The translations under genes and the position numbers were made by a program. DNA of 64,000 nucleotides from Diospyros lotus (lineage: Eukaryota > Streptophyta > Magnoliopsida > Ericales > Ebenaceae), in contig NC_068350.1 of assembly GCF_014633365.1 (NCBI RefSeq), positions 35,641,119-35,705,118 on the forward strand, written 5' to 3'. The notes beneath the pieces are model-generated. The model was not told where the DNA came from. It made no database searches and saw only the letters and a list, made by a program, of their open reading frames with translations. Positions 1,241 through 41,408 of this stretch are shown here, in pieces; positions within the stretch are counted from its first letter, which is position 1, and every line of letters starts with the position of its first letter.

Positions 1241-1242
1241 TG

Positions 1243-1265
1243 TATATATATATATATATATATAT
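1243..1265. repeat. (TA)n microsatellite
   Basis: About 11 uninterrupted TA units lie only 13 bases beyond the stop codon of the P450, so probably inside its 3' untranslated region or just past it. Such a run is expected to be length-polymorphic. Confidence 0.9.
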
Positions 1266-1277
1266 GTTCTGCTGACA

Positions 1278-3521
1278 CTAACATGAACACATTGTTACAA
1301 CAGCTAATAAAGGAAGCTTTTTGCAGATTATTGACCCTGCAGCTTCACTCATGTCCAACTCCTCTACTCCTCTTGCAGGTAATGCGAAGTCAAACATCAA
1401 CATTAGATTTGCTAATGCAAGCTGAAGAACCGCTAATGAAAACTGAGCTCCTGGACAGCTCCTTCGACCAGCACCAAATGGAATCAACTCAAAATGATGC
1501 CCTTTAAACTCTACAGAGCTATGTAAAAACCTTTCTGGCTTGAAATCTTCAGGCTCATCCCATACCAATGGGTCCCTACCAATTGCCCAAGTGTTTATGA
1601 GCACTTGCGTACTGGCTGTTATATCATAGCCCATTACTTTCACATTTTGGGTTGATTCTCTAGGAATTAGAGGAGCTACAGGGTGTAAACGCATGATTTC
1701 TTTAATTATAGCTTGTAAGTATGGCATTTTTTTCAAGTCATCCTCAATTATTGCTTGCTTGCCTCTTCCTATTTCTCGCACTTCATTTTGGAGTCTCTTC
1801 ATGGATTTTGGATCTTTCAAGAGTTCTGCCATTGTCCATTCTAAAGTTGCATATGTAGTATCAACTCCACCTATAAACATATCCTGAAAGAGGTACAAAT
1901 ATAATTTATTGAGTTTAGTAGAAAAGAAGATTTAAAAAGTAGCAATTTTGGAAAAATTATTTGGTTTCACTATACCATAGATTTTAAATAAATAAATGTT
2001 GGTAATTTTTTATTCAAAGACATCACAATAAATGTTGTACTAAATTAAATTTTAAAACTGGCTTTAATAATTAAAATTTACAACATATTCACTGTTTATT
2101 AAGAAAATAGATTGCAGAGGTCTACCGTAAATAAAGTTTTGAAATTTTTTTATTAAAGGCATCACAGTATTTTTATTTTTTTATTTTAAATACTAAAATA
2201 AGTACTTTTTTTCTACAGACAAAAACAAGATAAAAGAAAAAACACATCTTTTGCTATATGTTTGACTTTAAAAATTACTTCAATATATGTATTTTATATT
2301 AGTCACGAAAAACACTGTTCCCACAAATTTCTTATTTAGAAAATATTATTATATCGAAGCCGATGTTAGTAATTAAATATGAGCACTTGTAAGTTTCTTA
2401 AATCAATATGGAAAGGAAGTAATAGCGCCCCCAAAACCTAGGCCTTACCATGATAAGAGCTTTGACGGTATCCTTATGAAGTGAAAAACCAGCAACTTCG
2501 TCTCTCTGAATTTGAAGCAAAACATCTACAAAATCACGTCGACTTTCACATGTAACTTTGTCACCGTCGTTTCTCTCTCTTTCCTCAACGTGTTCTTGAA
2601 TTACAAGTTCCAGAAAAGTATCAATTTCCTTAGCAACCTTATCAGCTCTACCATATAAACCATTCAAATGGCCCAACCATCGCATCCATGGAACATAGTC
2701 CCCCACATTGAAACCACCCAACAGCTCCATAAACTCCATCAAAATCTCCTTAAACTTCCTCCCTCCTCCCGCTCCGCTGCCGCCGCCGCCATCGTACTTC
2801 CTCCCTAGCACCTCCCTGCACACTACGTTATTGATGTGCTCCGCCAACATTTCGCTTAAATTTATCTGTTAGAATAAATATGGGACTCAAACCAATGAAT
2901 ATGATGAATTATATGGGTATTTATAAATAGACATGGACAGATGATTGAATATATAAGAGATAAATATGAATCCATTGGTTAAATTAATCTCATCATCACC
3001 ACCACCGAGGGAGAGACGGAGCAGAAAGATCCCATGATCTTCTCAATCAGAAGGGCGGTTTCTTCCTCTCTCACGGCGCGAAATGACTGCACCCTCTTGC
3101 TGCAGAGAAGCTCGAGCACGCATATGCTTCTGATCTGCCGCCAATACTCCCCGTAAGGAGCGAAAACCACGTCCTTGCAATCATACATAAGCTTGCTGCG
3201 AATGGGGGATTTGGGTCGGTTGGAGAAGGAGAGGTCGTTGGTTTTCATGATCTCTCGGGCGGCATCGCCGGAGGAGACGACAAGAACCGGGTTGCTGCCG
3301 AAGTGAAGCAGCATCAGTGGGCCATGTCTCAGAGCCAGCGAACGGAGCGTGCGGTGGGGGAGTAAGCCAAGCTGATGCAGATTTCCTATTATCGGAAGCT
3401 TTAAGGGAGATGGCGGAAGGTTCTTTCTGGGATTTCGAATGGTGATCCAACATTTGAGAAGGAAGATGAAGAACAGAAAAATGGAAAGAAAAAAGTAGAA
3501 GGATTGATCTCTCGACCACAT
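1278..3521 (-). CDS. CYP71-type cytochrome P450 monooxygenase
   Basis: Membrane-anchored haem monooxygenase of the plant A-type (CYP71 clan), expected on the ER with NADPH-P450 reductase as partner; substrate unknown. Joining exons 3521-3006, 2865-2449 and 1883-1278 gives 512 residues, the usual P450 length, with both junctions in phase 0 and GT-AG. Visible in order: N-terminal hydrophobic anchor (residues ~8-25), proline-rich hinge PPSPLKLPIIGN, I-helix GGVDTT (~316-321), K-helix EIMR (~373-376), PERF (~427-430), and haem-binding PFGAGRRSCPG with Cys ~454. The start at 3521 is preferred because an in-frame ATG at 3587 lies upstream of the TATA-like box at 3571-3579. The junction into exon 3 matches the classic A-type intron position before DMF. 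The 140-bp first intron is unusual for this clan (separate entry). A Gly-rich stretch follows VLGRKYD. The CYP71A-like assignment is by recognition only; subfamily uncertain. Confidence 0.88.
1884..2448 (-). other. conserved A-type P450 intron
   Basis: 565-bp intron with GTAAGG donor at 2448 and TTTCAG acceptor ending at 1884. It is AT-rich with no open frame. Its position, between the sequences KALIM and DMFIGG, is the single intron position shared by A-type plant P450s, which supports a genuine, unprocessed gene. Confidence 0.85.
2866..3005 (-). other. 140-bp extra intron or insertion in P450 exon 1
   Basis: Without splicing, the frame runs into TAA at about 2979. Splicing from GTGGTG (donor 3005) to AACAG (acceptor 2866) joins SVSPS to INLSEMLAEH in frame, which fits CYP71 proteins at this point. 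The segment is AT-rich. Near-identical stretches (AGATTAATTTAAC and AGATAAATTTAAG) lie at its two ends, as if a small insertion or duplication had created it. It may be a recently gained intron or a disabling insertion; sequence alone cannot decide. Confidence 0.6.
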
Positions 3522-3570
3522 TTGTTGTTTCTTGGATGTATAGCAAAGATGATTCAGTTTTTGGTTTGAA

Positions 3571-3579
3571 TATATACAC
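3571..3579 (-). promoter_or_regulatory. TATA-like box of the P450 gene
   Basis: On the minus strand the text GTGTATATATTC lies about 50 bases upstream of the ATG at 3521, leaving a short leader. No other TATA-like element is nearer. This placement is why the ATG at 3587 is not taken as the start. Confidence 0.45.
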
Positions 3580-3594
3580 AAACCCACCTACCAA

Positions 3595-20553: not shown

Positions 20554-21833
20554 AAAATATCATTAAAAAATTAATACAAGAAAATCATATTGTTTAATAT
20601 GAAAAATAAAATAAAATAAAAAATCAAATAAAACAAAACAAAACAAAAAAAACAAATCACAGAAGGGGAAGGGGAGTTGCACCAATCAAAAGAAACCATC
20701 GGTAAAGGGGAGGCGGTACTCAATCGTTTGATGGCAGGCGGTGGCGGGCACAATGCTGGGGTTGTCGGTCAAAGGCAGTTGTTTGTCGACGGCAATGGGC
20801 GGTTGTCAGTCGATGGCGATGGGCAGTGGCGGCCTAGAAGAGAAGAGAGGAGAAAGTAGACAAGGGGTAGTCGATGGCGAGGGGCAGTGATGTAGGATAC
20901 AATGCAAGGGTTTACGACGAGGGGGGTCAACGATTATGGTTGCGATGGCAGTGGCGAAAGCGATCGGCAATGGCAGTGGTGGTCGATGGCCGAAGAAAAG
21001 AGATAAGAAAGGAGAGAAAATAGGAGAGGTGTGGGTCTACGTAGTGGGGTAGGGTGGGGGGGGAAGGCACGCATTTTCTGTGTTTTGGTGTTTTGGGCTA
21101 GTTTTCATTGAAAACACCCAAAGCAACAAAATGTTTGTTGGGTTTCATTTACAAAAATTTTCCTTATTTTCAAAAATATGTTTTTAAAAATAACAAAGTG
21201 AACGTGTTTTTAGTATTTTGATAAACAAAAACTCAAAATGGGTTAAAAACAGCAAAAAGAATGTAGTCTTATATTTTCCTACATCGTTCGTAATCCTATA
21301 TATTATTTACTCTTCACAATATTCACTTAGACATAGTATTCTTAATTTTACAACCGAACATATTTATAATAATAAATCCTAGTTCTCACAACCAATTCCA
21401 TAGGAATAGTAAAGTCCACCTTTTCTTTTTGTCTTTAACTTTGTATTGCATATTCTTGGTTGCCTTTATATAATCTTATTTATATTAATTGTCTTACCCG
21501 ATCACTTAATTGACATGTTATTTTTTATGCAGAACAAGATACTATATGGATATTAGTCGACATCGAACATGAGTTCAATAGTGGAGTAGGAAGTGCCCAT
21601 TAGCGGGTACATATTACCTAACTAAAGTTTTTACTATGCTACACTCCAATTAATTGTATAATTGAGATGAATAATTTTTTATAATATTTTTAGTTTTTTT
21701 AGTGAAAATATAAAAGCAAGACTGCAAAGTCCTTTTTGCTACTACATTCTATCTATATTGTTTCTCATTTGAACAATGATATAAAATTTTATTCTTTAAT
21801 CAATGAAAGGATCTTGAAGTTTATCTCAAAGAA
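20554..21833. other. non-coding, with a G/C-biased patch and a broken small frame
   Basis: The patch 20680-21060 is rich in GGC, GATGG and GTCGATGGCGA-type text and looks like a degraded repeat. From 21540 on there is a possible acceptor (TTTTTATGCAG) followed by a short frame. At 21736 another frame starts that runs to the Athila insertion point and continues in frame on the far side (34781-34841). I recognise no product. Confidence 0.45.
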
Positions 21834-23514
21834 TGATAAGGGTCAATATTTCCTATATCCTAATGAATTATATCCCTATTTTGGTTTTATATTTATACTT
21901 AAAGTAAATAATTATTCGTATTACATATTATTTCAGGATGAAGCAAGGAAGTTGGCTTCTATAATTAATTAGGGGCATAATCGAAGACATTGGATTACCC
22001 ATTTTTTATTGCTCAAATTCAAAGGCCAATTATGGAGTCTAGAGGATGTTTCAAGTGCACTTGGCCCAACTATCAAATGGAATCAAACCAAAGGCCCAAG
22101 ACCAACCAAAGGCCCAACAAAGCCCATTTTGCAGAAGACTTTTCTTTGTTTTGTATTTTTTTTTTATAAGTGATTTACCACCTAAAGTCTTTTGTATTAT
22201 TATGAGTAGTCCACCACCTAAAGTCTTTAGTATTTTTTGTCTTTTACCTAATTTTCTTCCATTAGTTAGGTGAATGTTTTGTGAGTGCCCATTAGATATA
22301 ATTATGTTTAGTTAAATAATTGTGTAGTTTGTATTGCATCTTGTGGGCTATAAATAGCTCACTTGGGTGCATTTGTGAGAAAGTGGTTATTACTTGAATC
22401 AAAGTTTAGTTTTATTCTTAGAGTTTCTCTTAGAGAATTGCTCTTATTCTCTCTCTTGTTTTCTCTTGTAATCTTACTTCCTTCCTTTCTTCTCTTAAAT
22501 TCTTATGTCATTTATTGTTACTTTATTATCTACCGCCTAAATGGCCAGTTAATTTCTGCCTTTAAATTTCTATAATTTTAATTCTTGTCTTTTAATTATC
22601 CACCGCCTAAATGGCCGGTTAGTTTATGCTATCTTAATTCCTATCATTTAAATTCTGTTATTTAAATTACGTCATTTAAATTCTTGTTAATTAACTTTTA
22701 AATGGAAATGAGTAGCTAAATCTAATCTTGGGTTAAGGCAAGGACAGTGTCCAACGCCAATGATTCCCAAAGAAAACTGTGCTTTAAATGAGTAACATTA
22801 ATTTAAATTTCAGTATGAGTGTGTTTTAATTATTGGAAAATCACTAGATTTGGATTGGAGCGTAAGCTTAACTTAGAGCTTTCATGTCATGCATGGGAAT
22901 TACTAGAACTGGAAACGCTATCATACCCAAATTCGGATGATTAATTTAGTTGTTTTGTAAATTAATTGTAATTGGATTTATGGTAGTTGCTTAAATTAGA
23001 ATCTCACATATCATGTATGGGGATTGCTTAAACTAGAACTATCATCATCTCTAATTGCATTTAGTAACAAACCCTCATATCTGAAATTAAATTAATGTTA
23101 CTAACCTTGTCTGCTAAAATTTGGGAATCAACGGGTTAGTACTGAAATTGTCTTAACTCAAGTGCTATCCAATTTTATTTTCACGTCCAGTATTTATTTC
23201 TACCTCTGTCTTGCTTTATTTCCTAGTATCTGTTGTTTAAAAAAAAAAAAAACCATAAAACAATCTTGTTACCAATCCATCTAAATGCGTGTGCGTGTTT
23301 GTGACATTCTTTTTCTTTTGCCATAAATAAATCTCTCAGTGGACTACCTGGACTCATCCAGAAAATATAAATTTAAATTTGGACTACAACTACACTCGTA
23401 CACTGACGAGTATAAACCTCTCACCAAAATAAAATATATATATATATATAAAAGTTTTAATGTGTTTTTATTGTGTTTTTATTGTGTTTTAATTGCAGGG
23501 TAAGAGTGCAGCCA
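21834..23514 (+). repeat. 5' LTR of the Athila element
   Basis: Starts TGATAAGGGTCAATATTTCC and ends GAGTGCAGCCA. It contains a TATA-like box (GGCTATAAATAGCTC near 22348) and a (TA)n run near 23433. It is 15 bp longer than the 3' copy, partly because of the TA run and an extra TTTTTATTGTG unit. Confidence 0.93.
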
Positions 23515-23519
23515 AATTT

Positions 23520-23537
23520 TGGCGTCGTTGCCGGGGA
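23520..23537 (+). other. primer-binding site, tRNA-Asp type
   Basis: TGGCGTCGTTGCCGGGGA lies five bases past the 5' LTR end. It differs at one position from TGGCGCCGTTGCCGGGGA, the complement of a plant tRNA-Asp 3' end as I recall it, the primer reported for Athila-type elements. Confidence 0.75.
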
Positions 23538-23650
23538 GATTGAGGCAAAAACAAAAAGAAAAAAAATAAGAATAAGCATCTCTTGATAAATTCGGTAACT
23601 CTGTTTCTTCTTTTTTTTCTTTTTACTTTATTTTTGTTTGTATATGGTGT

Positions 23651-25231
23651 ATGATACTTAGGTCAGGTAGAACTATAGAATATCAATCACTCATGTCTCA
23701 ACACAACGAGAACATGCATCTTGCACACAACATGTCTGCATATGGTAGTGACCACGGTGACCCTGACCCCATTGATCAAGAGATGATCAGACCCCTTAAG
23801 GAGTATCTTCATCCTCCTAGGCAGACAACCCCTACATGCATTATTCTTCCCATCAACCATCATAGGTTTAACTTCAAACCTGGCACAATCCAATTGTTGC
23901 CAACTTTTCATGGTATGGATTTTGAAAATCCATATACTCATATGAAAGAATTTGAGGAAGTATGTAGCACTTGCATGGACCATACAACAAATGAGGATGT
24001 CATAAGATTAAAACTCTTTCCATTCTCACTGAGAGATAAGGGAAAAATGTGGTTAGGCACTCTCCCACCTAGATTTATAGGAACTTGGAGAGAAATGCAA
24101 GCAACTTTCTTAAAAAATTACTTCCCTACCAACAAAACTACTACTCTTCAAAGACAAATCATGAATTTTGCCTGTAAACCAAATGAGAATTTTGCTCAAG
24201 CGTGGGAAAGGTTTAAAGACCTTCTTCACACTTGTCCCCATCATGCTTTTGAGTAATGAAGAGTGGTTAGTTTCTTTTATGATTCACTCACTCCCTAATT
24301 GAAAATGCTAGTTTCTACAATGTGCAATGGAGAATTCTATGAGAAGACTCCAGAAGAAGCTTTTCACTTCTTTGACACATTAGCTGAGAATACAAGGAAT
24401 TGGGAAGTTGGTCCAACATCTGCTCTTGATTCAAGAGAAAATCCATAACCTAGAGGGAGATACCAACTGAGTGAGAGTGACGATTTAAATGCAAGACTAA
24501 CTGCTTTAACAAAGAAAGTTGAAAACATGCAACCCAAAAAGGTGCAATCTGTTAATCAAGTGGAAGTAAAGTGTGTTGTGTGTGATGCAACAGATCATTC
24601 AACTGAAGAATATCCTACCATACCTGTTTTCAAGGAGGTATTATATGGGTAGACAAATAACAATCATTCACACAACTTTGAGGGGAGACAAAATCAAAAT
24701 CAAAGTGGAGCCTATTATGGGAATAATCAGAACTACAATTCATATCATCCCAATAATAGAAATCACCCTAATTTTTCTTGGAGAAATGATTCTGAAAATC
24801 ATTCTCAACCTCCCTTCCCTGCACAACAACACACTTTCCAACAGAATCAAGGTTCTTCATCCAATACTTACCAACCTCCTCATAGGAGATCTTTAGAAGA
24901 TACCTTGTACCAGTTCATCCAAAGTCAAACAGGCATCAATAATCAAGTTGCCAAAACTCAAGAGCAAACTAACAAAGCCATGGAAGACATTAGGAGCCAG
25001 TTGACCAAGCTAATACAAACATTGAGTATGAGAGAACCCGGAAGGTTTCCATCCCAAACTAATCCTAACCCAATTAGGCAAACCAACCAGGTAGAAGCTT
25101 CAAATAGTGAAACCAATACTCATGAACAAGTGCAAGCGGTGACTGCCCTAAGAAGTGGAAGATTAATTGAAAAACCAACTAATCCTAGGATAAACCAACC
25201 TGCTGTTGAAGAGGAAGAACAAAAAGATTAA
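23651..25231 (+). pseudogene. Athila gag, broken by stops
   Basis: Structural capsid/nucleocapsid polyprotein of the retroelement. One reading frame can be followed across the whole interval. It begins at ATG 23651. The capsid region includes NFKPGTIQLL, FPFSLRDKGKMWLGTLPPRF and AWERFKDLLHTCPHH, typical of plant retrotransposon gag. Tandem stops TAA-TGA stand at 24254-24259, and more at 24296, 24446 and 24650. The nucleocapsid zinc knuckle near 24573-24620 reads CVVCDATDHSTEEY: the expected final Cys of CX2CX4HX4C is Tyr. The tail is Asn/Gln-rich, then continues to 25231. With five stops and a lost zinc ligand it cannot give full-length Gag. Confidence 0.88.
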
Positions 25232-25970
25232 GAATCCACCATGGAAAAAAATGAAAAAAAATGAGAAAAATGAAAAACGAAAAGAAGATGGGAAAGAAAT
25301 TCAATACAGGCTCAAACCACCTTTTCCACAAAGGTTGAGTCATTTGAAAAAAGAGCAACAAAATACAAATATATATGAAGTGTTTAAGCAAGTGAGAATC
25401 AACATCCCGTTGTTGGATGCAATCAAACAAACACCTTCATATGCAAAATTTTTGAAAGATCTGTGCATTGTCAAAAGAAGAACAAATGTGCAGAAAAAGA
25501 CTTTCCTGACTGAACAAGTCAGCGCCATTCTCCAATTGAAAACTCCTCCCGAATACAAGGACCCGGGCTATCCAACCATTACATGCATCATAGGAAGTCA
25601 AAAGGTTGATCGGGCACTCTTGGATTTAGGAGCTAGTGTCAATTTGTTGCCATACAATGTGTATCAACAGTTGGGATTAGGTGAACTAAAACCCATTAGA
25701 GTGACCCTTCAGCTGGCTGATCGATCAGTCAAAGTTCCACGAGGAATTGTGGAGGATGTTCTAGTACAAATCGATAAGTTCTACTTTCTGGTGGACTTCA
25801 TCGTTTTGGACACCCAGCCGCATCAGGGGCCTCAACCTCCTGTGCCAATCATATTAGGTCGACCATTCCTTGCCACATCAAATGCCATCATCAACTGTAG
25901 GAATGGTGTGTTAAAGCTATCTTTTGGGAACATTGAATATCTTCAGGGTAGCCAAACATCAAGACACTGA
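25206..25970 (+). pseudogene. Athila protease region of pol
   Basis: Retroelement aspartic protease domain with its N-terminal linker. The linker text (FKQVRINIPLLDAIKQ, RTNVQKKTFLTEQVSAIL) is characteristic of Athila/Tat pol. The active-site motif is ALLDLGASVNLLP, followed by LADRSVKVPRGIVEDVLV and VPIILGRPFLAT. It is in a different frame from gag; the change falls in a poly-A-rich stretch around 25230-25260. It loses frame again near 25930-25945, after LKLSFGN, where about two bases appear missing relative to the expected continuation NIFRVAKHQ. Confidence 0.85.
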
Positions 25971-27468
25971 GAGTGAAGTGGAGGAGGTAGACTTGATCCA
26001 AACACTTACCGATGATTATTTTGAAGAGGTCATGAGAAAACCCAAAGAAGGAAATCAAGATCTTGAGGAAATAAGAGAAGTGGAAGTCATAGACAAAGAA
26101 AACGAGAAGCCTACATGGATGCCTGGTTTAGAGCCATTAAGGAACTTGGACAGTAAACTCACGGCTTCTGATAGCCATCAGTCCACGCCTGAGAGAAAGC
26201 CGTTACCCAGTGATTTGAAGTATGTCTTTCTAGGAGAAGGGGAAGAATTTCCAGTGGTGATCTCTTCTAGTTTGACACCTCGGCAAGAGCAACAACTGAT
26301 AGAAGTTCTAAAAAGACACAGGAAGTCATTAGGATTGACCATTTCAGATTTGCAAAGTATTAGCCCTTTGATCTGTACTCATAAGATATTCTTGGAAGAA
26401 ACAGTAAAACTAGTTAGGCAAATGCAAAGGAGACTAAATCCCAACATGAAAGAAGTTGTCAGAAAAGAAGTGCTTAAGCTATTGGATGCTGGAATAATTT
26501 ACCTAATCTCTGATTCTAAGTGGGTAAGTCCAACACGGGTAGTACCAAAAAAGTCTGGAGTCACTGTTGTAAAAAATGAGAACAATGAACTGATTCCCAC
26601 GCGCATCCAGACAGGATGGCGTATGTGCATTGATTATAGAAAGCTCAATTCTGTGACAAGAAAATATCATTTTCCTTTACCTTTCTTGGATCAAGTTTTG
26701 GAGAGAATAGCAGGCTAAGCCTGCTATTGTTTCTTAGATGGGTACTCAGGGTACAATCAGATAGAAATTGCACTAGAAGATCAAGAGAATACTACTTTCA
26801 CATGTCCATTTGGGACATTTGCATATAGGCACATGCCATTTGGGTTATGCAATGCTCCATCCACCTTTCAAAGGTGTATGATGAGCATTTTTAGTGAAAT
26901 GGTTGAGCAGATTATTGAAGTATTCATGGATGACTTTTCTGTTTATGGAAGTAACTTTGAGACATATTTGGAGAATTTGAAAAAGGTTTTAGCAAGATGT
27001 GAGGAAACAAATCTGATACTCAACTGGGAAAAGTGTCACTTAATGGTGAAACAGGGCATAGTCTTGGGGCACATTGTTTCATCTAGGGGGATGGAGGTAA
27101 ACAGGTCAAAAATTGAAACCATTCAAAAACTCCCCACTCCTAGAAATGTGAAAGACATCAGAAGTTTTTTAGGACATGCAGGGTTTTATAGGAGATTCAT
27201 TGCTTCCTTTAGCACCATAACAAGGCCCTTGTGTCATTTGTTGTCTCAGGATATTCCGTTTGAATGGACTCCTGCCTGTCAAAATGCTTTTGATAAATTG
27301 AAAGATGCACTCATTTCAGCACCTATCATTCAGTCCCCTGATTGGTCCCTCCCATTTGAACTTATGTGCGATGCTAGTGATTACGCGGTAGGAGCTGTGT
27401 TAGGGCAGAGAAAGGATAAGAAACCTCATGTGATATACTATGCTAGCAAAACTCTTAATGAGGCGTAA
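25924..27468 (+). pseudogene. Athila reverse transcriptase and RNase H start
   Basis: Reverse transcriptase of the element. The visible series is LLDAGIIYLISDSKWVSP, GWRMCIDYRKLNSVT, FLDGYSGYNQIEIA, HMPFGLCNAPSTFQRCM, the catalytic FMDD in VFMDDFSVYG, and LGHIVSSRGMEV. It continues to the RNase H start FELMCDASDYAVGAVLGQR. Catalytic residues look intact, but an in-frame TAA at 26716-26718 lies between ERIAG and CFLDGYSGYNQI, and TAA at 27466-27468 cuts RNase H after KTLNEA. The frame is continuous otherwise. Confidence 0.9.
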
Positions 27469-29112
27469 AAGAATTATACAACTACAGAGAAAGAGTTACT
27501 AGCAGTTGTCTTTGTCCTAGACAAGTTCCAATCTTACCTCGTAGGATCACTAGTGATCATTTTTACTGATCACGCTGCTCTAAAATATCTGTTCACAAAG
27601 CAAGATGCAAAACCCCGTCTCCTCCGATGGATCTTACTCCTACAAGAGTTCAACATTGAAATCAGAGACAAGAAGGGAGTAGAGAATGTGGTGGCTGATC
27701 ATTTGTCAAGGATTCTAGGTCAAGATCTCACACAATTTGATGAACCAATCGATGACAATTTCCCTGATGAGCAACTGTTTGAAGTGAATGCTATTCATGC
27801 ATCATCTGTTGTCCCTTGGTATGCTGACATTGCAAACTACCTGGCAACTAGTCTGATCCTAGACCATTGGAGTAAGCTAGATAGGCATAAATTCTTAAGA
27901 AAAGTCAGAACCTTCTTTTGGGATGAGCCCTACCTCTTCAAGTATTGTCCTGACCAAATCATCCATAAATGCATACCCGATCATGAGCAACAAAGTGTCA
28001 TTAATTTATGTCATACTCTTGCATGTGGAGGCCATTTTTCTGTCAAGAAAACAATTGCAAAAAATTTTCAGAGTGGATTTTATTGGCCAACACTATTCAA
28101 GGATGTGTACAAGTTCTGTTCAAGTTGTAATCGATGTCAAAGGTTAGGAAGCTTGTCAAGGAGAAACATGATGCCATTACATCCGATCCAAGTGTTAGAA
28201 GTTTTTGACTGTTTGGGTATGGATTTTATGGGCTCATTTGTCAATTCATTTGGTCATGAATACATCTTACTTGCTGTCGACTATGTGTCCAAATGGGTCG
28301 AAGCAATCCTGGCTAGAACAAATGACCATAAGACTGTTGTTAAATTTTTAAAAGAAAATATATTCAGTCGATTTGGGATGCCACGAGCAATCATCAGTGA
28401 TGGGGGTTCCCATTTTTGTAATAAATTTGTGGCAGGATTAATGAAGAAATATGGTGTACTGCATAAGGTTGCAACACCATACCATCCCCAAGCTAATGGT
28501 CAAGCTAAGCTAGCCAATAGGGAGATTAAGCGCATATTGGAAAAAATTGTTGCTGCTAATCGTAAGGATTGGTCCTTAAGACTAGTAGACGCTCTGTGGG
28601 CGTACAGGACAGCTTACAAAACAATTTTAGGAATGTCTCCCTAGAGGCTAGTATACGATAAATCTTGTCATCTGCCGGTGGAAATTGAGCATAGAGCATA
28701 TTGGGCAATTCAAAAGATCAACAAGAGTCTAACTGAAGCAGGCCTATTTAGGAAGCTCTAATTGAATGAACTTGAGGAAATTCGGAACGAGGCATTTGAA
28801 AATGCATGATTGGCCAAGGTTCGCATGAAAGAGTTACATGATCGGCATATCATCCGAAAAAGCTTTCAGGTAGGGCAACAGGTACTCTTGTACGATTCTC
28901 GATTGCATCTCTTTCCAGGAAAATTGAAGTCTCGATGGGTTGGTCCCTTTGTAATCAAGTCCATCTCAGAATATGCGGCCTTTGAGATAGAAAATTCGGA
29001 GTCAGGACAACTTCTTACAGTCAATGGTCATAGGTTGAAACCATACCAGGGTAATGTTGAGGAGAATGAAGGTGTTGTGGATTTGGATGATCCACCATCA
29101 TCTGATGAGTAA
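27469..29112 (+). pseudogene. Athila RNase H end and integrase
   Basis: Same frame as the reverse transcriptase. RNase H ends with [26 protein letters not shown] and [10 protein letters not shown]. The integrase zinc region keeps H..H and CSSCNRCQ (near 28020-28140). The core has GMDFMGSF (first Asp) and ISDGGSHF (second Asp). The third catalytic residue is lost: [20 protein letters not shown] has Lys where Glu is expected in the NGQAE consensus. Stops stand at 28642, 28759 and 28807. The tail LFPGKLKSRWVGPFVIK and no chromodomain fit Athila. The integrase would be inactive. Confidence 0.9.
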
Positions 29113-29916
29113 GGGACGTTTCATATTGTCTGGGAATCTGACGTTAAAAGACCACCTTTCCATTTAGGTTAAATGGATGTTTCTAGATTTGAAAAAAAAA
29201 AGTATAATATATATAAATTGTTTCCTTTCTGCATTACTCAAATATTATTTCTCTGTGTGCAGTTTAAACAAAATTTTTGCATACGAGTTCATGCACTGAA
29301 GACTGCCAGGTATGCCTATCTTCTATCCTTTTATTGCCGATTGAGGACAATACGCAATTCAAGTTGGGGGGTAAGGTGTACTTAAGAATTGATTTATTGG
29401 TGTTTGAAATTGATCCATTGTGCAAATAATTTTGTTTGACTCGATAATATTGTCTTGTCTGGTATATATATAATTTTATTAGGCCTCTAAAAAAATAATA
29501 TTAATAATAATAAAATTAAAAAATAAATAATAAAAAAAATTAAAAAAAAAATTAATTGAGGGAGACAGAATTAGCACTGGTGGTAGCCATTTTTTCTCGG
29601 GCAATGCAATCACACTATCCTATAAAGGAAGAGGCACACTGCCAAATATTGAAAAATGAGGCATCGAGCGTTGAAAAAAGAGACGCGTCTGACCCTACAA
29701 TTATGGCGTGCCTCGAGCCGAGTGTAGAATAGTGATACCCATTGCTCTATAAGAGACTCCATATCTGTATGAGGTAAGCCACACTTCTGCAAGTAAGCTT
29801 AGTCTCCTTTCATTTGTGTTGTTCTCTTATCAAGTACTCTCGTTCATTTTGCAAGATTCATAGTTTTTTTTAGTTTTCTTTTATTATAGTTGTTTTTTAA
29901 TTAAAAATTAAAAAAA
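29113..29916 (+). other. leader region between pol and the accessory frames
   Basis: Non-coding. It contains a polypurine-like motif AATTCAAGTTGGGGGG (29355-29372), TATA-like boxes TATAAAGG (29621-29628) and CTATAAGA (29746-29753), and candidate splice donors AG|GTAAG at 29774 and AA|GTAAG at 29793. These signals could serve a sub-transcript for the downstream frames, but that is inference from motifs only. Confidence 0.4.
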
Positions 29917-30462
29917 ATGGATCTTTAACTCTTAAAAATTTGCAAGTACTATCCATCTCTCCCAATGAATGATTTGAAAAAAATTTATACCGCTAGACGT
30001 GAAAAACTTAGAATGTTGATGTATAATAACATCCCTGAAGATATTCGCTAGTTGATCGAAGCAAAAGTTCGATTACTAGGCGAAACTTCACCTAGTTTTA
30101 AGCATTTTCCAGGTTTGGGAAAGAGTAGTTTTGCGAAGAAACGAATAGCGAAAAGAGTGAATGGTTGTCACAAATGTGCTCGTTGGACCTGTAACACACG
30201 ATGCAAATCTGTGGGGTTTACGTCCGTAAATCGAGAAGATAAAATTAGTTTCATAAAGGATGGGCTGAGTAAGGAGTCTTTGCATGATATCCGATTGACT
30301 CTTGAGACGCATCCGTGTGGAATAGTGCAAAGAGAACTTCTTGCTTTATGGACCCAGTTCATAAGTGACTACCAACGTTATAGTCTTGGGAATCTGACTA
30401 AAAACAACCCTGTTTGCCAATCTTTAAGAAAATTGGATGGGAAGCTTATCCCCGCTTCATAG
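29917..30462 (+). pseudogene. unidentified cysteine-containing accessory frame
   Basis: A frame of 182 codons from ATG 29917 (or ATG 29965), carrying TAA at 29926 and TAG at 30049, then open to TAG... end at 30462 for about 137 codons. The centre is basic and cysteine-bearing: SSFAKKRIAKRVNGCHKCAR, then TCNTRCK, i.e. CX2C...CX3C with nearby Lys/Arg, suggesting a small metal- or nucleic-acid-binding protein. The C-terminal part has ETHPCGIVQRELLALW. I do not recognise the family. The basic-plus-CX2C layout superficially recalls small cysteine-rich proteins of some plant RNA viruses, but that is impression, not homology. It lies 171 bp upstream of, and in the same frame as, the LOG-like frame, in the position where Athila elements often hold an env-like gene. 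Confidence 0.5.
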
Positions 30463-30607
30463 AAAGTGTTTAAGTTGTTTCTGGACGTAAAACTAGAGGA
30501 AGATGTGAGCCACAATCACAACTATTTGTACATACACATAATCTTTATTTGTGTTTATTTCTTGTTGAATTTTTGTAGACCTACTTTTGATCACCAAATC
30601 TCTTTTC

Positions 30608-30609
30608 AG
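30608..30609 (+). promoter_or_regulatory. candidate splice acceptor before the LOG-like frame
   Basis: The text CAAATCTCTTTTCAG|GGCATAC has a pyrimidine-rich tract and AG, ending 24 bases before the LOG-like ATG. Paired with the donor-like AG|GTAAG at 29774 it would remove the cysteine-containing frame and place the LOG-like ATG first in an mRNA. Confidence 0.35.
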
Positions 30610-30633
30610 GGCATACATAAAGAACAAATATAA

Positions 30634-31293
30634 ATGGAAGGTCAATTAGTTCGTCGAATCAACACCATATGTGTACTATGTGGCTCTCAACTCGGGAGCG
30701 ACAGTAGTTACGCACTTGCAGCAAGCGAACTAGGCCTAAAATTGGGAGAAAGAAAAATTAATTTGATATATGGAGGGGGAAGTCGTGGATTGAATGGTTG
30801 TGTTTCGCAAGCTGCACATCTTGGAAAATCATATGTGGTAGGTGTAATGCCAATCCCTTTTGCTGAACCACATATTTCTTGGATTACACGCGGTCAACTT
30901 ATAGAAATGACTTCTATGTCTGAGCGCATGGTTTGTAAGATTTATCAATCAGACGCCTTCATTGCTTTACCAGGAGATTTTGGAACACTTGAAGAAATCT
31001 TTTGTATAATCTTCTAGGCCAAGAGTAATCTTCATACCAAACCCATTGGACTTTTAAATGTTAATCATTTTTTCGATGGGTTGCTCTCTTTTCTTGATCA
31101 GATTGTGGATCAAAAGTTCATTTCTCTTTCAGCAAGAAAAATTCTCATTTTCGCATCCACCATTGATGAGCTACTAGAGAAATTACATACTTATGTTCCA
31201 CAGTACGATTTTTATGAGCCACGGATAGATTGGTCTAAGGTAACTAGAAACAAGTGCCAAAGGGGTCCGATTAATTTAGATTTATCCCTGTAA
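30634..31293 (+). pseudogene. LOG-like cytokinin phosphoribohydrolase captured in a retrotransposon
   Basis: LOG enzymes cleave cytokinin nucleoside 5'-monophosphates to free, active cytokinin in one step. Here 219 codons match a full-length LOG: N-terminal ICVLCGSQLG, nucleotide-binding YGGGSRGLNG (residues ~46-55), conserved Arg in MSERM (~98), and IALPGDFGTLEE (~110-121), where the family motif is PGGxGTxxE, so the second Gly is Asp. Then KPIGLLNVNHFFDGLLSFLD and ISLSARKI follow. A TAG at 31015-31017 stands where LOGs have Trp (one-base change from TGG); the frame is otherwise unbroken. Plant LOG genes have several introns, and none are present here, implying capture from a processed transcript. 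It lies in the Athila element between pol and the 3' LTR. Activity is doubtful given the stop and the Gly-to-Asp change. Confidence 0.85.
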
Positions 31294-33109
31294 GACAAGT
31301 CTATAATGAGATGGCTAAGTAAGGAGTACTTTTTGTACTCTTGAGACGCATCTCCTATGACTTGCATGAAATTTTTTTATGTTCTCTTAAAAAAAAAAAA
31401 AAACTGTAGAATGTTGTTAGGCAAGTCTATGATAAGATGGCTGAGTAAGAAGTATTTTTTGTACTCTTGAGACGCATTTTGTTTATCTTATGACTTGCAT
31501 AATTTTTTTTATTTTTTTTTATGTGAAAATATAAATATATATGTTATGCTCATTTGTTTGTTAGAGTTCTAGCAGTTCACAGTAAATCTATGGACTTGTG
31601 GAGTTACAGGTATTTCTAACAACCCTATTTTATCACTGTAATTCAAGTTAGGGGTGTAAGGTCTAATTATAAATTATTTTGTTCATGTTTAGCTGTGAGT
31701 TTGCTATTATTTGCTTGTAGTCTTGTGTGAATTGATTATCTTTATCTGCTTTTATTAAAAGAAAAAAAATTGTGTTTTAAATAACATTATTCCTAAAGCT
31801 TTGGAGTTATGCACTGATAGCTAGTTAAGTCTGCAATACGAAACATGAATGCATTGATTTCTTATTTGAAAACGTATATGCATTGGAACAAGTAATTTGC
31901 ATTCATCGGGTATTCAAAATTAAAAAAAAAAAAAAATTGGTTATCGGTCATAAAGTCAAAGGTGCTAGTAATTAGCTGATTAGTACACTGTATGATCCCT
32001 CAACAGAAGTGGAGACTATTTCCCAAGTGAGTGTTTGAACCTAATAACCGTTAATTCTGAGTGAAATAACACTTACTCTAAATATGCTTTATTGTTTATC
32101 TCATCTTTTCAATGGCTTCAAAACATCAATTCGCCTTGAATGTCTAGTATGATAGCGGATGAATTTGACTGGTTTCAAATTCCGAATTAGATGACTGAGT
32201 AACATTGTTTTGTAGAAGCATGATAGGGGGATCAATTTCTTTTATTTTGGGCCTGTTAACCTTTTTCTTTCTTTACATTAATCTCCATTGCTAGCTCATG
32301 TGAACCATTTGTAGTACAATTTCTTTCGTTACTATCATTTAACCCATAACCATATGAATTTTGTCCAACCTGGTGTGATTTTGGGAATTAGTCTGTCTAG
32401 TTATTTTCATGTTAAAAAAAAAGAGAAAAAAAAAAGAAGAAAAAAAAAAGTGAAAAAAAAAGAAAAAATTCTCTTAGCTATTCAGCACAATTGTTTCAAA
32501 ACAAATGTCAAAAAAAAAAAAAAAAATCCCAGCACACCATTTGCATACTCTATCCTTTTCTTTGACAACCTGTATTAACCTCATAACCCCATTATAACCC
32601 GGTTTGATCCCTTTTGATGCTATAAATTATGTGATCTCAAAATTCGAGTTCGGAGTAGGGAATTATGTTTAAATTCAGAAGTTATTCATCTAGGGCATTA
32701 TTCCAGTCAAGAAGCTATGTCAATTTTCTCGTTCTTTCATGAAAATACGTTCCTTGTATTTGGAATGGCACCGAGTTTTGAACTTGTTTTACATTTACTC
32801 TTATAACGGTGCACCCCCTTGTGTGTACACCTGAGGAATAGTTTTATTGAGAGGAAAAATCCATAGTAAGGTTTAAAGTCAAAACTTCGAGGGAGTAAAT
32901 CTGTGTATTGGTCATCCTGATTGCCATTCTTGAGATTATATGACCTTTAACCAGAAATCTGATTTTGAATGTTCGACTGTATGCCAAACTACTCTACGCA
33001 TTTTGGTTTCGAATTTGAAATTTTTATATTCATGCAAGTATTGCGATTAGATCATGGCTAGTGTATAATCTAATTGCTAAGGGACTAGCAATATTCAAGT
33101 TGGGGGGTG
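31294..33109 (+). other. 3' non-coding region of the Athila element
   Basis: No gene. It begins with two ~110-bp tandem units (31290-31400 and 31415-31515) sharing GATGGCT(A/G)AGTAAG and CTCTTGAGACGCAT. A polypurine-like AATTCAAGTTAGGGG occurs at about 31639-31654, A-rich runs at 32413-32465 and 32509-32526, and the true polypurine tract (TTCAAGTTGGGGGGTG) directly before 33110. Confidence 0.6.
33094..33109 (+). other. polypurine tract of the Athila element
   Basis: TTCAAGTTGGGGGGTG abuts the 3' LTR start TGATAAGG, the expected plus-strand priming site. Two similar motifs occur upstream at about 29357 and 31640. Confidence 0.75.
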
Positions 33110-34775
33110 TGATAAGGGTCAATATTTCCTATATCCTAATGAATTATATCCCTATTTTGGCTTTATATTTATGCTTAAAGTAAATAATTATTCGTATTAC
33201 ATATTATTTCAAGATGAAGCAAGGAAGTTGGCTTCTACAATTAATTAGAGGCATAATTGAAGACATTGGATTACCCATTTTTTATTGCTTAAATTCAAAG
33301 GCCAATTATGGAGTCTAGAGGATGTTTCAAGTGCACTTGGCCCAACTATCAAATGGAATCCAACCAAAGACCCAAGATCAATCAAAGGCCCAACAAAACC
33401 CATTTTGTAGAATACTTTTCTTTGTTTTGTATTTTTTTTTTATAAGTGATTTACCACCTAAAGTCTTTTGTATTCTTATGAGTAGTCCACCACCTAAAGT
33501 CTTTGGTATTTTTTGTCTTTTACCTAATTTTCTTCCATTAGTTAGGTGAATGTTTTGTGAGTGCCCATTAGATATAATTATGTTTAGTTAAATAATTGTG
33601 TAGTTTGTATTGCATCTTGTGGGCTATAAATAGCTCACTTGGGTGCATTTGTGAGAAAGTGATTATTACTTGAATCAAAGTTTAGTTTTATTCTTAGAGT
33701 TTCTCTTAGAAAATTGCTCTTATTCTCTCTCTTGTTTTCTCTCGTAATCTTACTTCCTTCCTTTCTTCTTTTAAATTCTTATGTCATTTATTATTACTTT
33801 ATTATCTACCGCTTAAATGGCCAGTTAATTTTTGCCTTTAAATTTCTATAATTTTAATTCTTGTCTTTTAATTATCCATCGCCTAAATGGCCAGTTAGTT
33901 TATGCTATCTTAATTCCTGTCATTTAAATTCTGTTATTTAAATTACGCTATTTAAATTCTTGTTAATTAACTTTTAAATGGAAATGGGTAGCTAAATCTA
34001 ATCTTGGGTTAAGGCAAGGACAATGTCCAACGCCAATTATTCCCAAAGAAAACTGTGCTTTAAATGAGTAACATTAATTTAAATTTCAGTATGAGTGTGT
34101 TTTAATTATTGAAAAATCATTAGATTTGGATTGGAGCGTAAGCCTAACTTAGAGCTTTCATGTCATGCATGGGAGTTACTAGAATTGGAAACGCTATCAT
34201 ACCCAAATTCGGATGATTAATTTAGTTGTTTTGTATATTAATTGTAATTGGATTTATGGTAGTTGCTTAAATTAGAATCTCACATATCATGTATGGGGAT
34301 TGCTTAAACTAGAACTATCATCATCTATAATTACATTTAGTAACAAACTCTCATATCTGAAATTAAATTAATGTTACTAACCTTGTCTGCTAAAATTTGG
34401 GAATCAATGGGTTGGTACTGAAATTGTCTTAACTCTAGTGCTATCCAATTTTATTCTCACGTCCAGTATTTATTTTTACCTCTGTCTTGCTTTATTTCCT
34501 AGTATCTGTTGTTTAAAAAAAAAAAAACCATAAAACAATCTTGTTACCAATCCATCTAAATGCGTGTGCGTGTGTGTGACATTCTTTTTCTTTTGCCATA
34601 AATAAATCTCTCAATGGACGACCTGGACTCATCTAGAAAATATAAATTTAAATTTGGACTACAACTGCACTTGTACACTGACGAGTATAAACCTCTCACC
34701 AAAATAAAAAAATATATATATAAAAGTTTTAATGTGTTTTTATTGTGTTTTAATTGTAGGGTGAGAGTGCAGCCA
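33110..34775 (+). repeat. 3' LTR of the Athila element
   Basis: 1666 bp, collinear with the 5' LTR and only a few percent different by eye, ending GAGTGCAGCCA followed by the target duplication AAGAA. The A run after TGTTT and the TA run are shorter than in the 5' copy. Confidence 0.93.
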
Positions 34776-34849
34776 AAGAACACTTTTAAAGAGATTATTG
34801 GTCATTTTGCTTTCCTCTTAAGAGACCCGTCGCTAAAATAAACACCCCC

Positions 34850-40144: not shown

Positions 40145-40771
40145 TCAAATAGAACCAATGACCACATCATTCACCTCCACTTGAGAAGAATTCGACCTCG
40201 AATTATGATCTAGGTATGATAATTCCACATCCGACAAATACAAAAAAATATCAGCAATATTAAAGGTTTTGAAAATACCCATATAATTAGGCAAATCCAC
40301 AACATCAGCATTGTCATCGAACATAGTAATCTTGTTGATTACTCTACTGTCAACACACATCCTCCAACTCCCATCTTTCTTTCGTGTCAATAATGTTGGC
40401 ACTGCACATGGACTCATACTAGCCTAAATGTGCCCTTTTCTCAACAATTCCTCTACTTGCTCCTGCAAAATCTCATTCTTCCTAAGACTCATCCTGTAGT
40501 GTGGTAGGTTAGGTAAACTAACACCAGGAACCAAATCAATGTGGTGTTGAATATCCCTCAAAGGAGGTGGCTCATTAGGCAGCTCCTCAAGAACCATATC
40601 ATGAAATTCATCCATCAATCCTTGCACCTCCACTGGAATTTGATTCACCTTCAATGGTTCACTCACACTCTTCCCCTTGACAACCAACGAATGACCGTCT
40701 CGGGTATCCCTACACTCCCTCACAAACTCAATGTGCTTATGTGTAATGGTAAGAAAATTCCTCCCCTCCAC
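40145..40771 (-). pseudogene. chromovirus RT start fused to the pol tail by deletion
   Basis: One minus-strand frame reads HHIDLVPGVSLPN, LRKNEILQEQVEELLRKGHI, a TAG at 40424-40426 where Gln is usual, then [20 protein letters not shown] and [12 protein letters not shown]: the N-terminal half of reverse transcriptase. It then jumps straight to [20 protein letters not shown]...[14 protein letters not shown], which resembles the extreme C-terminal tail of chromovirus pol. The palm, YxDD, RNase H and integrase are all missing, so the copy has a large internal deletion, and it ends next to the polypurine tract. Confidence 0.75.
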
Positions 40772-41060
40772 TTTAGAAGCTTTGGTTTAGTTCTTTTCCA
40801 CTATGAGTAACAAAGTATAACGCACACCCTTTTTCTCAAACTAATGAGTTCTTTCCACCCGAATGCTTAGCATCCATATCAAATTGCCAAGATCTCCCAA
40901 ATAAAATATAGCAAGCATCCATATCAACAATATCACAATAGACTTCATCAAACTACTTACTAATAGAGAAAAGCACACTACAGCGTTCATCCACACATAT
41001 GTTAGCAACTTCTTTGATCCATTTGATCGTATAAGGGTTTGGATGCTTTTCAGGGATCAA

Positions 41061-41408
41061 CTACAACTTTTCCACCACATCTCTTCCTATAATGTTCTCC
41101 TGGCTTCCACTATCAATAATCAACTCAAAGATCTTTCCTTTTACCTTACTCCTCGTGAAAAAAAGCTTATGTCGCTGAGTAGTATCCTCATTCTTTTGAG
41201 ATAGCATTAGCTTCCTTACTACACATGTATATGCTTCATGGTCATACTCTTCTTCGTCATCCTCCCCATCAGGCCCGCAATAGACTTCCTCATCGGCCAC
41301 ATCTTCCTCCTTCATTTCAACAATGTTAATTGATCTCCTCATTAGGCAATCACTAGATCGATGTTCAACCTCATTGCACTTAAAACACTTAAAGAATAGG
41401 CTTTGCAT
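41061..41408 (-). pseudogene. gag zinc knuckle and protease remnant
   Basis: The minus strand reads CFKCNEVEHRSSDC (CX2CX4HX4C, all four ligands present), an acidic spacer (EEDVADEEVYC, EDDEEEYDHEAY), then the aspartic-protease motif LIIDSGSQENIIG. The order and spacer fit Ty3/gypsy gag-pol. It is followed (40772-41060) by decayed text up to the reverse transcriptase remnant. Confidence 0.75.

What the first reader, a model, noticed from the sequence alone, without database searches (positions are those of the whole stretch)
30634..31293. A LONELY GUY-type cytokinin-activating gene carried inside an Athila retrotransposon
Seen: a 219-codon intronless frame with YGGGSRGLNG, MSERM and PGDFGTLEE lies between pol and the 3' LTR of a bounded LTR element with a perfect target duplication. 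Known: LOG enzymes release active cytokinin and use a PGGxGTxxE motif; plant LOG genes contain several introns. Inferred: a spliced LOG mRNA was captured into the element and once travelled with it. An element that could raise active cytokinin in dividing cells would gain from meristem or germline proliferation, an interesting selfish strategy. This copy has one TAG (Trp position) and a Gly-to-Asp change in the motif.
Basis: partly seen in the sequence, partly recalled or inferred. Interest (0 to 1): 0.88.

Follow-up and report, generated by a model that had tools for sequence, protein, structure and literature searches.

The report
Retrotransposon with hormone and virus genes
A plant jumping gene carries decayed copies of two extra genes, one for a LONELY GUY-type plant-hormone-activating enzyme and one resembling a plant-virus protein; relatives of both occur in several flowering-plant groups, and together they would likely help the element by quieting host defences and encouraging cell division.

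Summary
An intronless LONELY GUY (LOG)-type frame (30634-31293, one TAG, PGD for PGG) lies between pol and the 3' LTR of an Athila-like element (21834-34775, TSD AAGAA, LTR K2P 0.033). So the element carries a CRP-LOG cargo. Relatives of each protein occur in rosids and asterids. Sampled element-type LOGs form one branch apart from host LOGs (58 of 58 rows, 98/86), 98 of 113 keep the catalytic motif, and 91 of 121 end in LxLxL, an EAR-like tail seen in 0 of 120 LOG1/3-type host proteins (and in 0 of 9 Xanthoceras rows). A plant contig in a public bacterial bin has integrase plus an intact CRP frame and no detectable LOG, so the two genes are separable. LOG (YgdH) in Citrus and Populus LTR elements was already reported; my ten searches showed no report of the CRP, the pairing or the tail. 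Predicted, untested: CRP suppresses silencing and LOG raises active cytokinin. Host-genome copies could not be searched.

The parts
21834..23514 (+). 5' LTR (1681 bp, TG...CA)
21829..21833 (+). target site duplication AAGAA (left)
34776..34780 (+). target site duplication AAGAA (right)
23520..23537 (+). primer-binding-site-like sequence TGGCGTCGTTGCCGGGGA (resembles the complement of a tRNA-Asp 3' end; recalled)
   Evidence: sequence; tRNA identity recalled, not tested
23651..24256 (+). gag fragment (Retrotrans_gag PF03732, 1.9e-15)
25206..25970 (+). protease fragment (Asp_protease_2, 1.8e-6)
25924..26718 (+). reverse transcriptase, 5' part (by inspection; not scanned)
26833..27468 (+). reverse transcriptase / RNase H
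27553..28644 (+). RNase H end and integrase (H2C2 zinc part and core)
   Evidence: 27531-28861 aligns to L001 at 68% nt
28810..29112 (+). frame taken as the C-terminal end of pol (no Pfam match)
   Evidence: inference from position
29357..29372 (+). polypurine-tract-like copy ATTCAAGTTGGGGGGT, between pol and the cargo
29917..30462 (+). CRP/NABP-type gene, broken by in-frame stops at 29926 and 30049; stop-free part 30052-30462 has a basic stretch and C-x2-C-x4-C-x3-C
   Evidence: not read through
30484..30530 (+). 47-nt block identical to L001 2369-2415, function unknown
30588..30609 (+). 3' splice-site-like sequence 25 nt before the LOG start (joint best of 773 AG sites in a simple score of my own)
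   Evidence: splicing not tested
30634..31293 (+). LONELY GUY-type phosphoribohydrolase frame, one TAG at 31015, PGD in place of PGG
31276..31290 (+). LDLSL C-terminal EAR-like (LxLxL) tail of the LOG frame
   Evidence: TOPLESS binding predicted, not tested
31289..31477 (+). two tandem degenerate copies (31289-31351, 31415-31477) of a CRP/NABP gene segment, downstream of LOG
33093..33108 (+). polypurine tract next to the 3' LTR
33110..34775 (+). 3' LTR (1666 bp)

Best explanation
A plant Athila-like LTR retrotransposon (21834-34775) carries between pol and its 3' LTR a decayed copy of a two-gene cargo, a Cys-rich protein related to flexivirus CRP/NABP silencing suppressors and a LONELY GUY-type enzyme, which likely helped the element by dampening RNA silencing and raising active cytokinin in the cells where it moves. 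Shown: the element's ends, both frames, their families, the single branch of the sampled element-type LOGs, the LOG active-site motif in most relatives, and the LxLxL tail in most relatives. Inferred: an ancestor already carrying the CRP gene gained a LOG coding sequence from a spliced plant mRNA (template switching during reverse transcription would do it); both proteins are made from spliced subgenomic RNAs; the CRP enters the nucleus and suppresses silencing and/or acts on host transcription as reported for Chrysanthemum virus B p12; LOG releases free cytokinin bases; its basic-plus-LxLxL tail recruits TOPLESS-type corepressors. This copy is dead: gag-pol, CRP and LOG frames are all broken. 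At 7e-9 to 1.3e-8 substitutions per site per year (recalled rates) it inserted about 1.3-2.4 million years ago.
For: Element bounds and TSD. LOG: PF03641 7.5e-28; AlphaFold model of relative P0002, pLDDT 88, best PDB matches Arabidopsis 2a33 and 1ydh and P. aeruginosa LOG. Relatives: 1216 proteins at E<=1e-3, host LOGs doubtless among them, best 120 seen; nearest named is Diospyros lotus, 84%. Tree: element-type 58 of 58 on one side of a branch, 98/86; host 17 of 17, 100/98. Constraint: at 73 columns where the host consensus, AtLOG8 and a bacterial LOG agree, 102 element-type rows keep the residue 81% of the time, against 33% at 111 other columns; exact PGGxGTxxE in 98 of 113. Tail: LxLxL in the last 15 residues of 91 of 121 rows of the LOG search (window included), 0 of 120 host rows; Leu at -1, -3, -5 nearly fixed while -2, -4 vary. 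CRP: PF05515 and PF01623 above curated cut-offs; each is matched by 15 of 16 rows scanned, window included; 322 relatives; dN/dS with L001 0.255/0.604 (NG86), 0.238/0.865 (YN00) over 136 codons. Element context elsewhere: L001 has integrase then an intact CRP frame; Xanthoceras P0006/P0007 join LOG to a gag-protease piece, 53% over 38 aa, E 1e-8 in a search of seven window frames. CRP biology: passages of PMC8839810 and PMC12172455.
Against: No activity, expression or copy-number data: the host genome was never searchable. The window is the only DNA locus read that has both genes; co-location elsewhere rests on four shared genera and on 4 equal contig lengths (47 against 54 lengths) where 120 shifted controls gave a mean of 0.76, one of them reaching 5. 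L001 lacks LOG, so the pairing is not obligatory (119 LOG queries, best short match E 0.009). The CRP finger spacing (C-x2-C-x4-C-x3-C) differs from the carlavirus C-x2-C-x12-C-x4-C. The CRP model is poor (pLDDT 65) and no BFVD match reaches E 1e-3. 30 of 121 LOG rows lack LxLxL in the last 15 residues, some of them cut short, and 0 of 9 Xanthoceras rows have it. 15 of 113 depart from the catalytic motif. dN/dS was measured for CRP only, on one pair, one member of which is dead. The splice-like site before CRP (29262) ranks only 25th of 773.
Confidence: 0.5

Rival explanations
1. Passenger: LOG and CRP were captured and copied by hitch-hiking, with no benefit to the element.
For: This copy is broken in both frames; L001 has CRP without detectable LOG; many captured gene pieces in plant elements are inert (general knowledge).
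Against: LOG frames of about 217 aa at 43-55% identity with the exact catalytic motif in 98 of 113 and deep residues kept; one branch over rosids and asterids; CRP dN below dS.
Confidence: 0.2
2. Immune-type role: the element LOG mainly acts as a host-directed effector, its LxLxL tail recruiting TOPLESS-type corepressors to mute defence or silencing genes, with cytokinin release secondary.
For: LxLxL tail with Leu positions nearly fixed and spacer residues free, behind a basic stretch, absent from 120 of 120 host rows; tail has pLDDT under 50; a fungal effector with an EAR motif binds TOPLESS (PMC7748000 passage).
Against: No binding data; tail missing in 9 of 9 Xanthoceras rows; the catalytic motif is also kept.
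Confidence: 0.2
3. The CRP-like gene is not of viral descent: it is a plant or element gene that converged on a basic-plus-Cys-finger design, or from which flexiviruses took theirs.
For: Pfam scores are modest (26.9 and 22 bits); finger spacing differs; about 180 aa, with an N-terminal helical part; the direction cannot be told without a tree that includes viral proteins, which I did not have.
Against: Two Pfam families matched above cut-off, each by 15 of 16 rows; 13 of the top 15 BFVD rows are named silencing suppressors or nucleic-acid/RNA-binding proteins of plant viruses, though all are weak.
Confidence: 0.3
4. Recent single-copy host retrogene that happened to land in the element.
For: The frame is intronless. 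Direct repeats do bracket LOG (30263/31313/31439 and the polypurine-like 29357/31641), although these are CRP-segment and polypurine copies; a target duplication shorter than 14 nt was not tested.
Against: The tree places it outside the sampled host LOGs; its nearest relatives are other element-type LOGs (75-86% for the nearest full or near-full ones).
Confidence: 0.03

Closest known systems
YgdH/LOG-containing Ty3/gypsy elements of Citrus and Populus (Steinbauerova 2011 as cited in PMC9289625)
   Same: LOG-family domain inside plant LTR retrotransposons; Populus LOG proteins fall in the same branch as this one
   Different: The PMC9289625 section read gives no cargo pairing, no CRP gene, no tail and no tree for it. 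Steinbauerova 2011 itself is not held.
Carlavirus/flexivirus Cys-rich proteins (NABP, e.g. Chrysanthemum virus B p12)
   Same: Basic stretch followed by a four-Cys finger; Pfam PF05515/PF01623
   Different: In a retrotransposon; finger spacing C-x2-C-x4-C-x3-C; commonly 182 aa; viral descent not shown
Plant LOG1/3-type cytokinin riboside 5'-monophosphate phosphoribohydrolases
   Same: Fold and active-site motif
   Different: Separate branch; intronless in the window; LxLxL tail, seen in 0 of 120 host rows
Phalaenopsis Gypsy elements with an AlkB-type RNA demethylase ORF (PMC9289625)
   Same: LTR element with a retained, enzyme-coding extra ORF
   Different: Different enzyme, found in Phalaenopsis; no second cargo gene in the parts I read
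Endogenous flexivirus replicase-like sequence in cucumber (PMC3136472, passages)
   Same: Flexivirus-related sequence in a plant chromosome
   Different: Replicase piece, not a CRP, and not described there as cargo of a retrotransposon
Oncogene-carrying retroviruses and Agrobacterium T-DNA (works-like analogy, recalled)
   Same: Mobile DNA carrying a growth-promoting gene
   Different: No infection or tumour shown here

Membership tests
LTR retrotransposon (Ty3/gypsy) | Two LTRs with TSD, gag, and RT, RNase H, integrase in that order | tested here: met
Athila lineage | No archaeal-type RNase H as in Tat; RT placed with Athila references | tested here: inconclusive
   No extra RNase H family in the pol pieces scanned (25924-26718 was not scanned); PBS looks like tRNA-Asp (recalled); no RT tree against references was made. 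PMC6317226 passages state the aRH difference.
LONELY GUY family | PF03641 domain and LOG fold | tested here: met
   Domain in the window frame; fold for relative P0002
LONELY GUY family | PGGxGTxxE motif | tested here: not met
   Window copy has PGD; 98 of 113 relatives have the exact motif. This copy is a decayed member; most relatives meet it.
LONELY GUY family | Release of cytokinin base from the nucleotide | not testable with these tools
   needs an enzyme assay
Carlavirus-type CRP/NABP | Pfam PF05515/PF01623 above curated cut-off | tested here: met
   each matched by 15 of 16 rows at E<=0.01
Carlavirus-type CRP/NABP | Finger spacing C-x2-C-x12-C-x4-C (PMC8839810 passage) | tested here: not met
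   C-x2-C-x4-C-x3-C in 110 of 120 relatives; hence called CRP/NABP-related, not filed as a carlavirus CRP
Carlavirus-type CRP/NABP | Silencing suppression, nucleic-acid binding | not testable with these tools
   needs bench assay
EAR-motif repressors | LxLxL motif (consensus recalled) | tested here: met
   window tail LDLSL; 91 of 121 rows
EAR-motif repressors | TOPLESS binding | not testable with these tools
   bench assay

The most novel reading that the evidence does not exclude
An ancient retrotransposon lineage of eudicots is a hormone-wielding selfish element: it pairs a virus-type nuclear Cys-rich protein that defeats RNA silencing with a cytokinin-releasing enzyme that has grown a TOPLESS-recruiting tail, so that it both unlocks its own expression and multiplies the dividing, germline-fated cells it transposes in, the plant counterpart of an oncogene-carrying retrovirus that stayed in the genome.
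Probability: 0.25. Interest if true: 0.93.

Novelty: new variant of a known kind. Interest (0 to 1): 0.78.

Why it matters
Extra ORFs of plant LTR elements often lack known domains. Here two have recognisable chemistry, one hormone-activating and one like a viral silencing suppressor, and relatives are kept in distant eudicots. If active, they would show that transposons manipulate host development and silencing with dedicated proteins, and that plant elements and RNA viruses share genes. Intact relatives exist in public databases, so the idea can be tested directly with a LOG assay, a TOPLESS binding test and a silencing patch test.

Tried and rejected
Host-genome copy count, dN/dS of LOG between copies, and a hunt for copies of this family: not done, the genome search gave 'busy' each time. 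IMG/VR scans with the CRP and LOG alignments: 38 and 48 pattern stretches, no relatives. Genome-contig scan with the CRP alignment: 157 stretches, one relative, L001. LOG in L001: 119 queries gave 12 short matches at E<=1, best 0.009, none LOG-like. Rfam on 28900-33300: none. RNA fold of 30455-30575, which holds the 47-nt block: z 0.73, nothing unusual. Viral-structure search with the CRP model: no E<=1e-3. Recent host retrogene: judged unlikely. Stop readthrough of the CRP as the reason for the 47-nt block: left open; the block is identical at every position, and one relative, P0203, has the extension in frame.

Rows and choices: the tree used 58 of 121 element-type rows (alternate rows of 180-230 aa plus eight named ones; P0115, a Miscanthus protein, was put with the hosts), 15 of 120 host rows plus P0115 and an AtLOG8 fragment, and one bacterial fragment; its bootstrap had not settled (0.989). 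One search used 102 element-type rows (205-225 aa) against 89 rows (87 host, AtLOG8 and the bacterial fragment). Contig lengths were compared only from 1300 to 20000 bases (47 and 54 lengths); equal lengths of 873 and 905 seen were left out as too short for both genes. A first count of the catalytic motif (100 of 113) used a looser pattern; the exact count is 98 of 113.

Full report
WHAT IS THERE. The element runs from 21834 to 34775. Its LTRs are 1681 and 1666 bp, begin TG and end CA, differ at 54 of 1666 aligned columns (K2P 0.033; 44 transitions, 10 transversions) and are flanked by the same five bases, AAGAA. Pieces of gag, protease, RT/RNase H and integrase lie in order between them, broken into several frames. 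The Athila label is likely but was not tested with an RT tree: no extra RNase H family was found in the pol pieces scanned, the feature by which PMC6317226 separates Tat from Athila (passages), and the primer site looks like a tRNA-Asp complement (recalled).

THE LOG FRAME. Window 30634-31293 is an intronless frame with one TAG at 31015. Read with X at the stop it matches PF03641 at 7.5e-28. Its catalytic motif reads PGD where 98 of 113 full-length relatives have exact PGGxGTxxE. The nearest named relative is an intact 219-aa protein of Diospyros lotus, 84% identical; others named from Populus, Xanthoceras, Diplodiscus, Primulina, Rehmannia, Orobanche, Parasponia and Melia are 43-51% identical (best 120 of 1216 seen; one further row, Miscanthus P0115, looks like a host LOG). 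Diospyros and Orobanche are asterids, Xanthoceras a rosid. The host species of the window is not known to me.

A FAMILY OF ITS OWN. In a maximum-likelihood tree of 76 rows, 58 of 58 element-type LOGs fall on one side of a branch (98/86) and 17 of 17 host LOGs group together (100/98); the window pairs with Diospyros (100/56). The bootstrap had not fully settled, and the bacterial row is long. Host sampling is mainly LOG1/3-type (best 120 of 7997) plus an AtLOG8 fragment and P0115; because AtLOG8 groups with the other host rows, an origin within the sampled host subfamilies is not supported. 'Element-type' is a label by sequence. Direct element context was seen for the window; two Xanthoceras gene models join LOG copies to a gag-protease piece matching window frame 25206-25970 (53% over 38 aa, E 1e-8 against seven frames); and PMC9289625 reports the domain in Citrus and Populus LTR elements (section 12).

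CONSTRAINT. At 73 columns where the host consensus, AtLOG8 and a bacterial LOG agree, 102 element-type rows keep the residue 81% of the time, against 33% at 111 other columns; column variability correlates between these rows and the 89 comparison rows (rho 0.56, 215 columns). An AlphaFold model of P0002 (pLDDT 88) matches Arabidopsis structures 2a33 and 1ydh best. A protein database lists open frames only, so survival of frames alone proves little; the residue pattern is the better evidence.

THE TAIL. 91 of 121 rows (120 search hits and the window) have LxLxL within the last 15 residues; none of 120 host rows does, nor within the last 40. In 90 of 102 rows of 205-225 aa hydrophobic residues sit at -1, -3 and -5; among those 90, Leu is at these places in 90, 89 and 88 rows, while -2 and -4 vary, and Lys/Arg fill -10 and -11 in 88 and 79. 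That is the pattern of an EAR motif (consensus recalled) behind a basic stretch. In the model the tail (206-219) has pLDDT under 50, as a disordered end would. None of nine Xanthoceras rows has it; two of them, in the tree, branch first among the element-type rows, so the tail was either gained after that split or lost there. Host controls are LOG1/3-type only.

THE MISSED GENE. Directly upstream, 29917-30462 is a second gene, stopped at 29926 and 30049. Its stop-free part matches PF05515 Viral_NABP (5.5e-6, 26.9 bits, cut-off 23) and PF01623 Carla_C4 (1.6e-4, 22 bits, cut-off 20.9). 322 relatives were found (best 120 seen, 52 of them 182 aa), some named from Rhamnella, Populus, Xanthoceras, Orobanche, Acer and Parasponia; four of these genera also have element-type LOGs. 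Each Pfam family is matched by 15 of 16 rows scanned; 110 of 120 carry C-x2-C-x4-C-x3-C and 104 of 120 a basic cluster just before the finger. A weak model (pLDDT 65) finds no significant viral structure, but 13 of the 15 top rows are named silencing suppressors or nucleic-acid/RNA-binding proteins of plant viruses. The finger spacing differs from the carlavirus one quoted in PMC8839810 (passage), so I call it CRP/NABP-related and do not file it as a carlavirus CRP. Carlavirus CRPs are reported as silencing suppressors, and that of Chrysanthemum virus B as a transcription factor that induces hyperplasia (passages of PMC8839810 and PMC12172455).

A SECOND ELEMENT. A scan of bacterial and archaeal genomes with the CRP alignment returned one contig, L001 (DAIEQH010000041.1, 3330 bp, filed under Candidatus Nomurabacteria), which I read as plant retrotransposon: integrase, then an intact 186-aa CRP frame, then a polypurine-like tract. 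119 LOG queries find no LOG in it (best short match E 0.009); 983 bases follow the CRP frame. CRP is thus separable from LOG and perhaps the older cargo. Over 136 codons CRP gives dN 0.255, dS 0.604 (NG86) or 0.238, 0.865 (YN00). Behind the CRP stop a 47-nt block is identical in both (window 30484-30530, L001 2369-2415), the longest exact match between L001 and window 27001-33200, in a region otherwise 74% alike; it has no Rfam match and no unusual fold.

HOW IT LIKELY WORKS. Inferred: an Athila-like ancestor carrying a CRP gene took up a LOG coding sequence from a spliced mRNA. Both would be expressed downstream of pol, perhaps by splicing: an acceptor-like site 25 nt before the LOG start has the joint best score of 773 AG sites, by a score of my own, while the one before CRP at 29262 ranks only 25th. 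CRP would bind nucleic acid and suppress silencing or act on host genes; LOG would release active cytokinin; the tail would recruit TOPLESS. Two degenerate CRP segments downstream of LOG (alignment scores 35 and 33 against maxima of 25 and 29 in 200 shuffles each) could be footprints of template switching, but they look too well kept for so old an event.

CO-LOCATION ELSEWHERE. Only the window shows both genes on DNA that I read. Among 47 contig lengths of LOG hits and 54 of CRP hits (1300-20000 bases), four are equal (2128, 2425, 4511, 8723); 120 shifted controls average 0.76 and one reaches 5. This is a hint, not proof.

NOVELTY. LOG in plant LTR elements is known. In ten full-text searches (listings) I saw no report of a CRP/NABP gene in a retrotransposon, of the pairing, or of the tail. 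Steinbauerova 2011 is not held and no supplementary files were read, so part of this may be in print.

Noticed in passing
L001 (DAIEQH010000041.1) 1-3330: A plant-type Athila-like integrase plus CRP frame filed in a bacterial genome bin (Candidatus Nomurabacteria): probably contamination of the public record.
   Followed up: partly
window 30484-30530; L001 2369-2415: 47-nt block identical behind the CRP stop in two elements whose CRP regions are otherwise 74% alike in DNA; purpose unknown.
   Followed up: partly
window 31289-31351 and 31415-31477: Tandem degenerate copies of a CRP gene segment (like 30253-30313) downstream of LOG.
   Followed up: partly
window 29357, 31641, 33093: Three polypurine-tract-like copies ATTCAAGTTGGGGGGT (the middle one degenerate); the cargo lies between the first two.
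   Followed up: no
window 1278-3594 (-): Frames that look like a cytochrome P450 gene split by an intron (by inspection).
   Followed up: no
window 60733-62540 (-): Frames that look like a beta-tubulin gene with introns (by inspection).
   Followed up: no
window 40424-41408 (-): Pieces that look like another gypsy-type element on the minus strand (by inspection).
   Followed up: no
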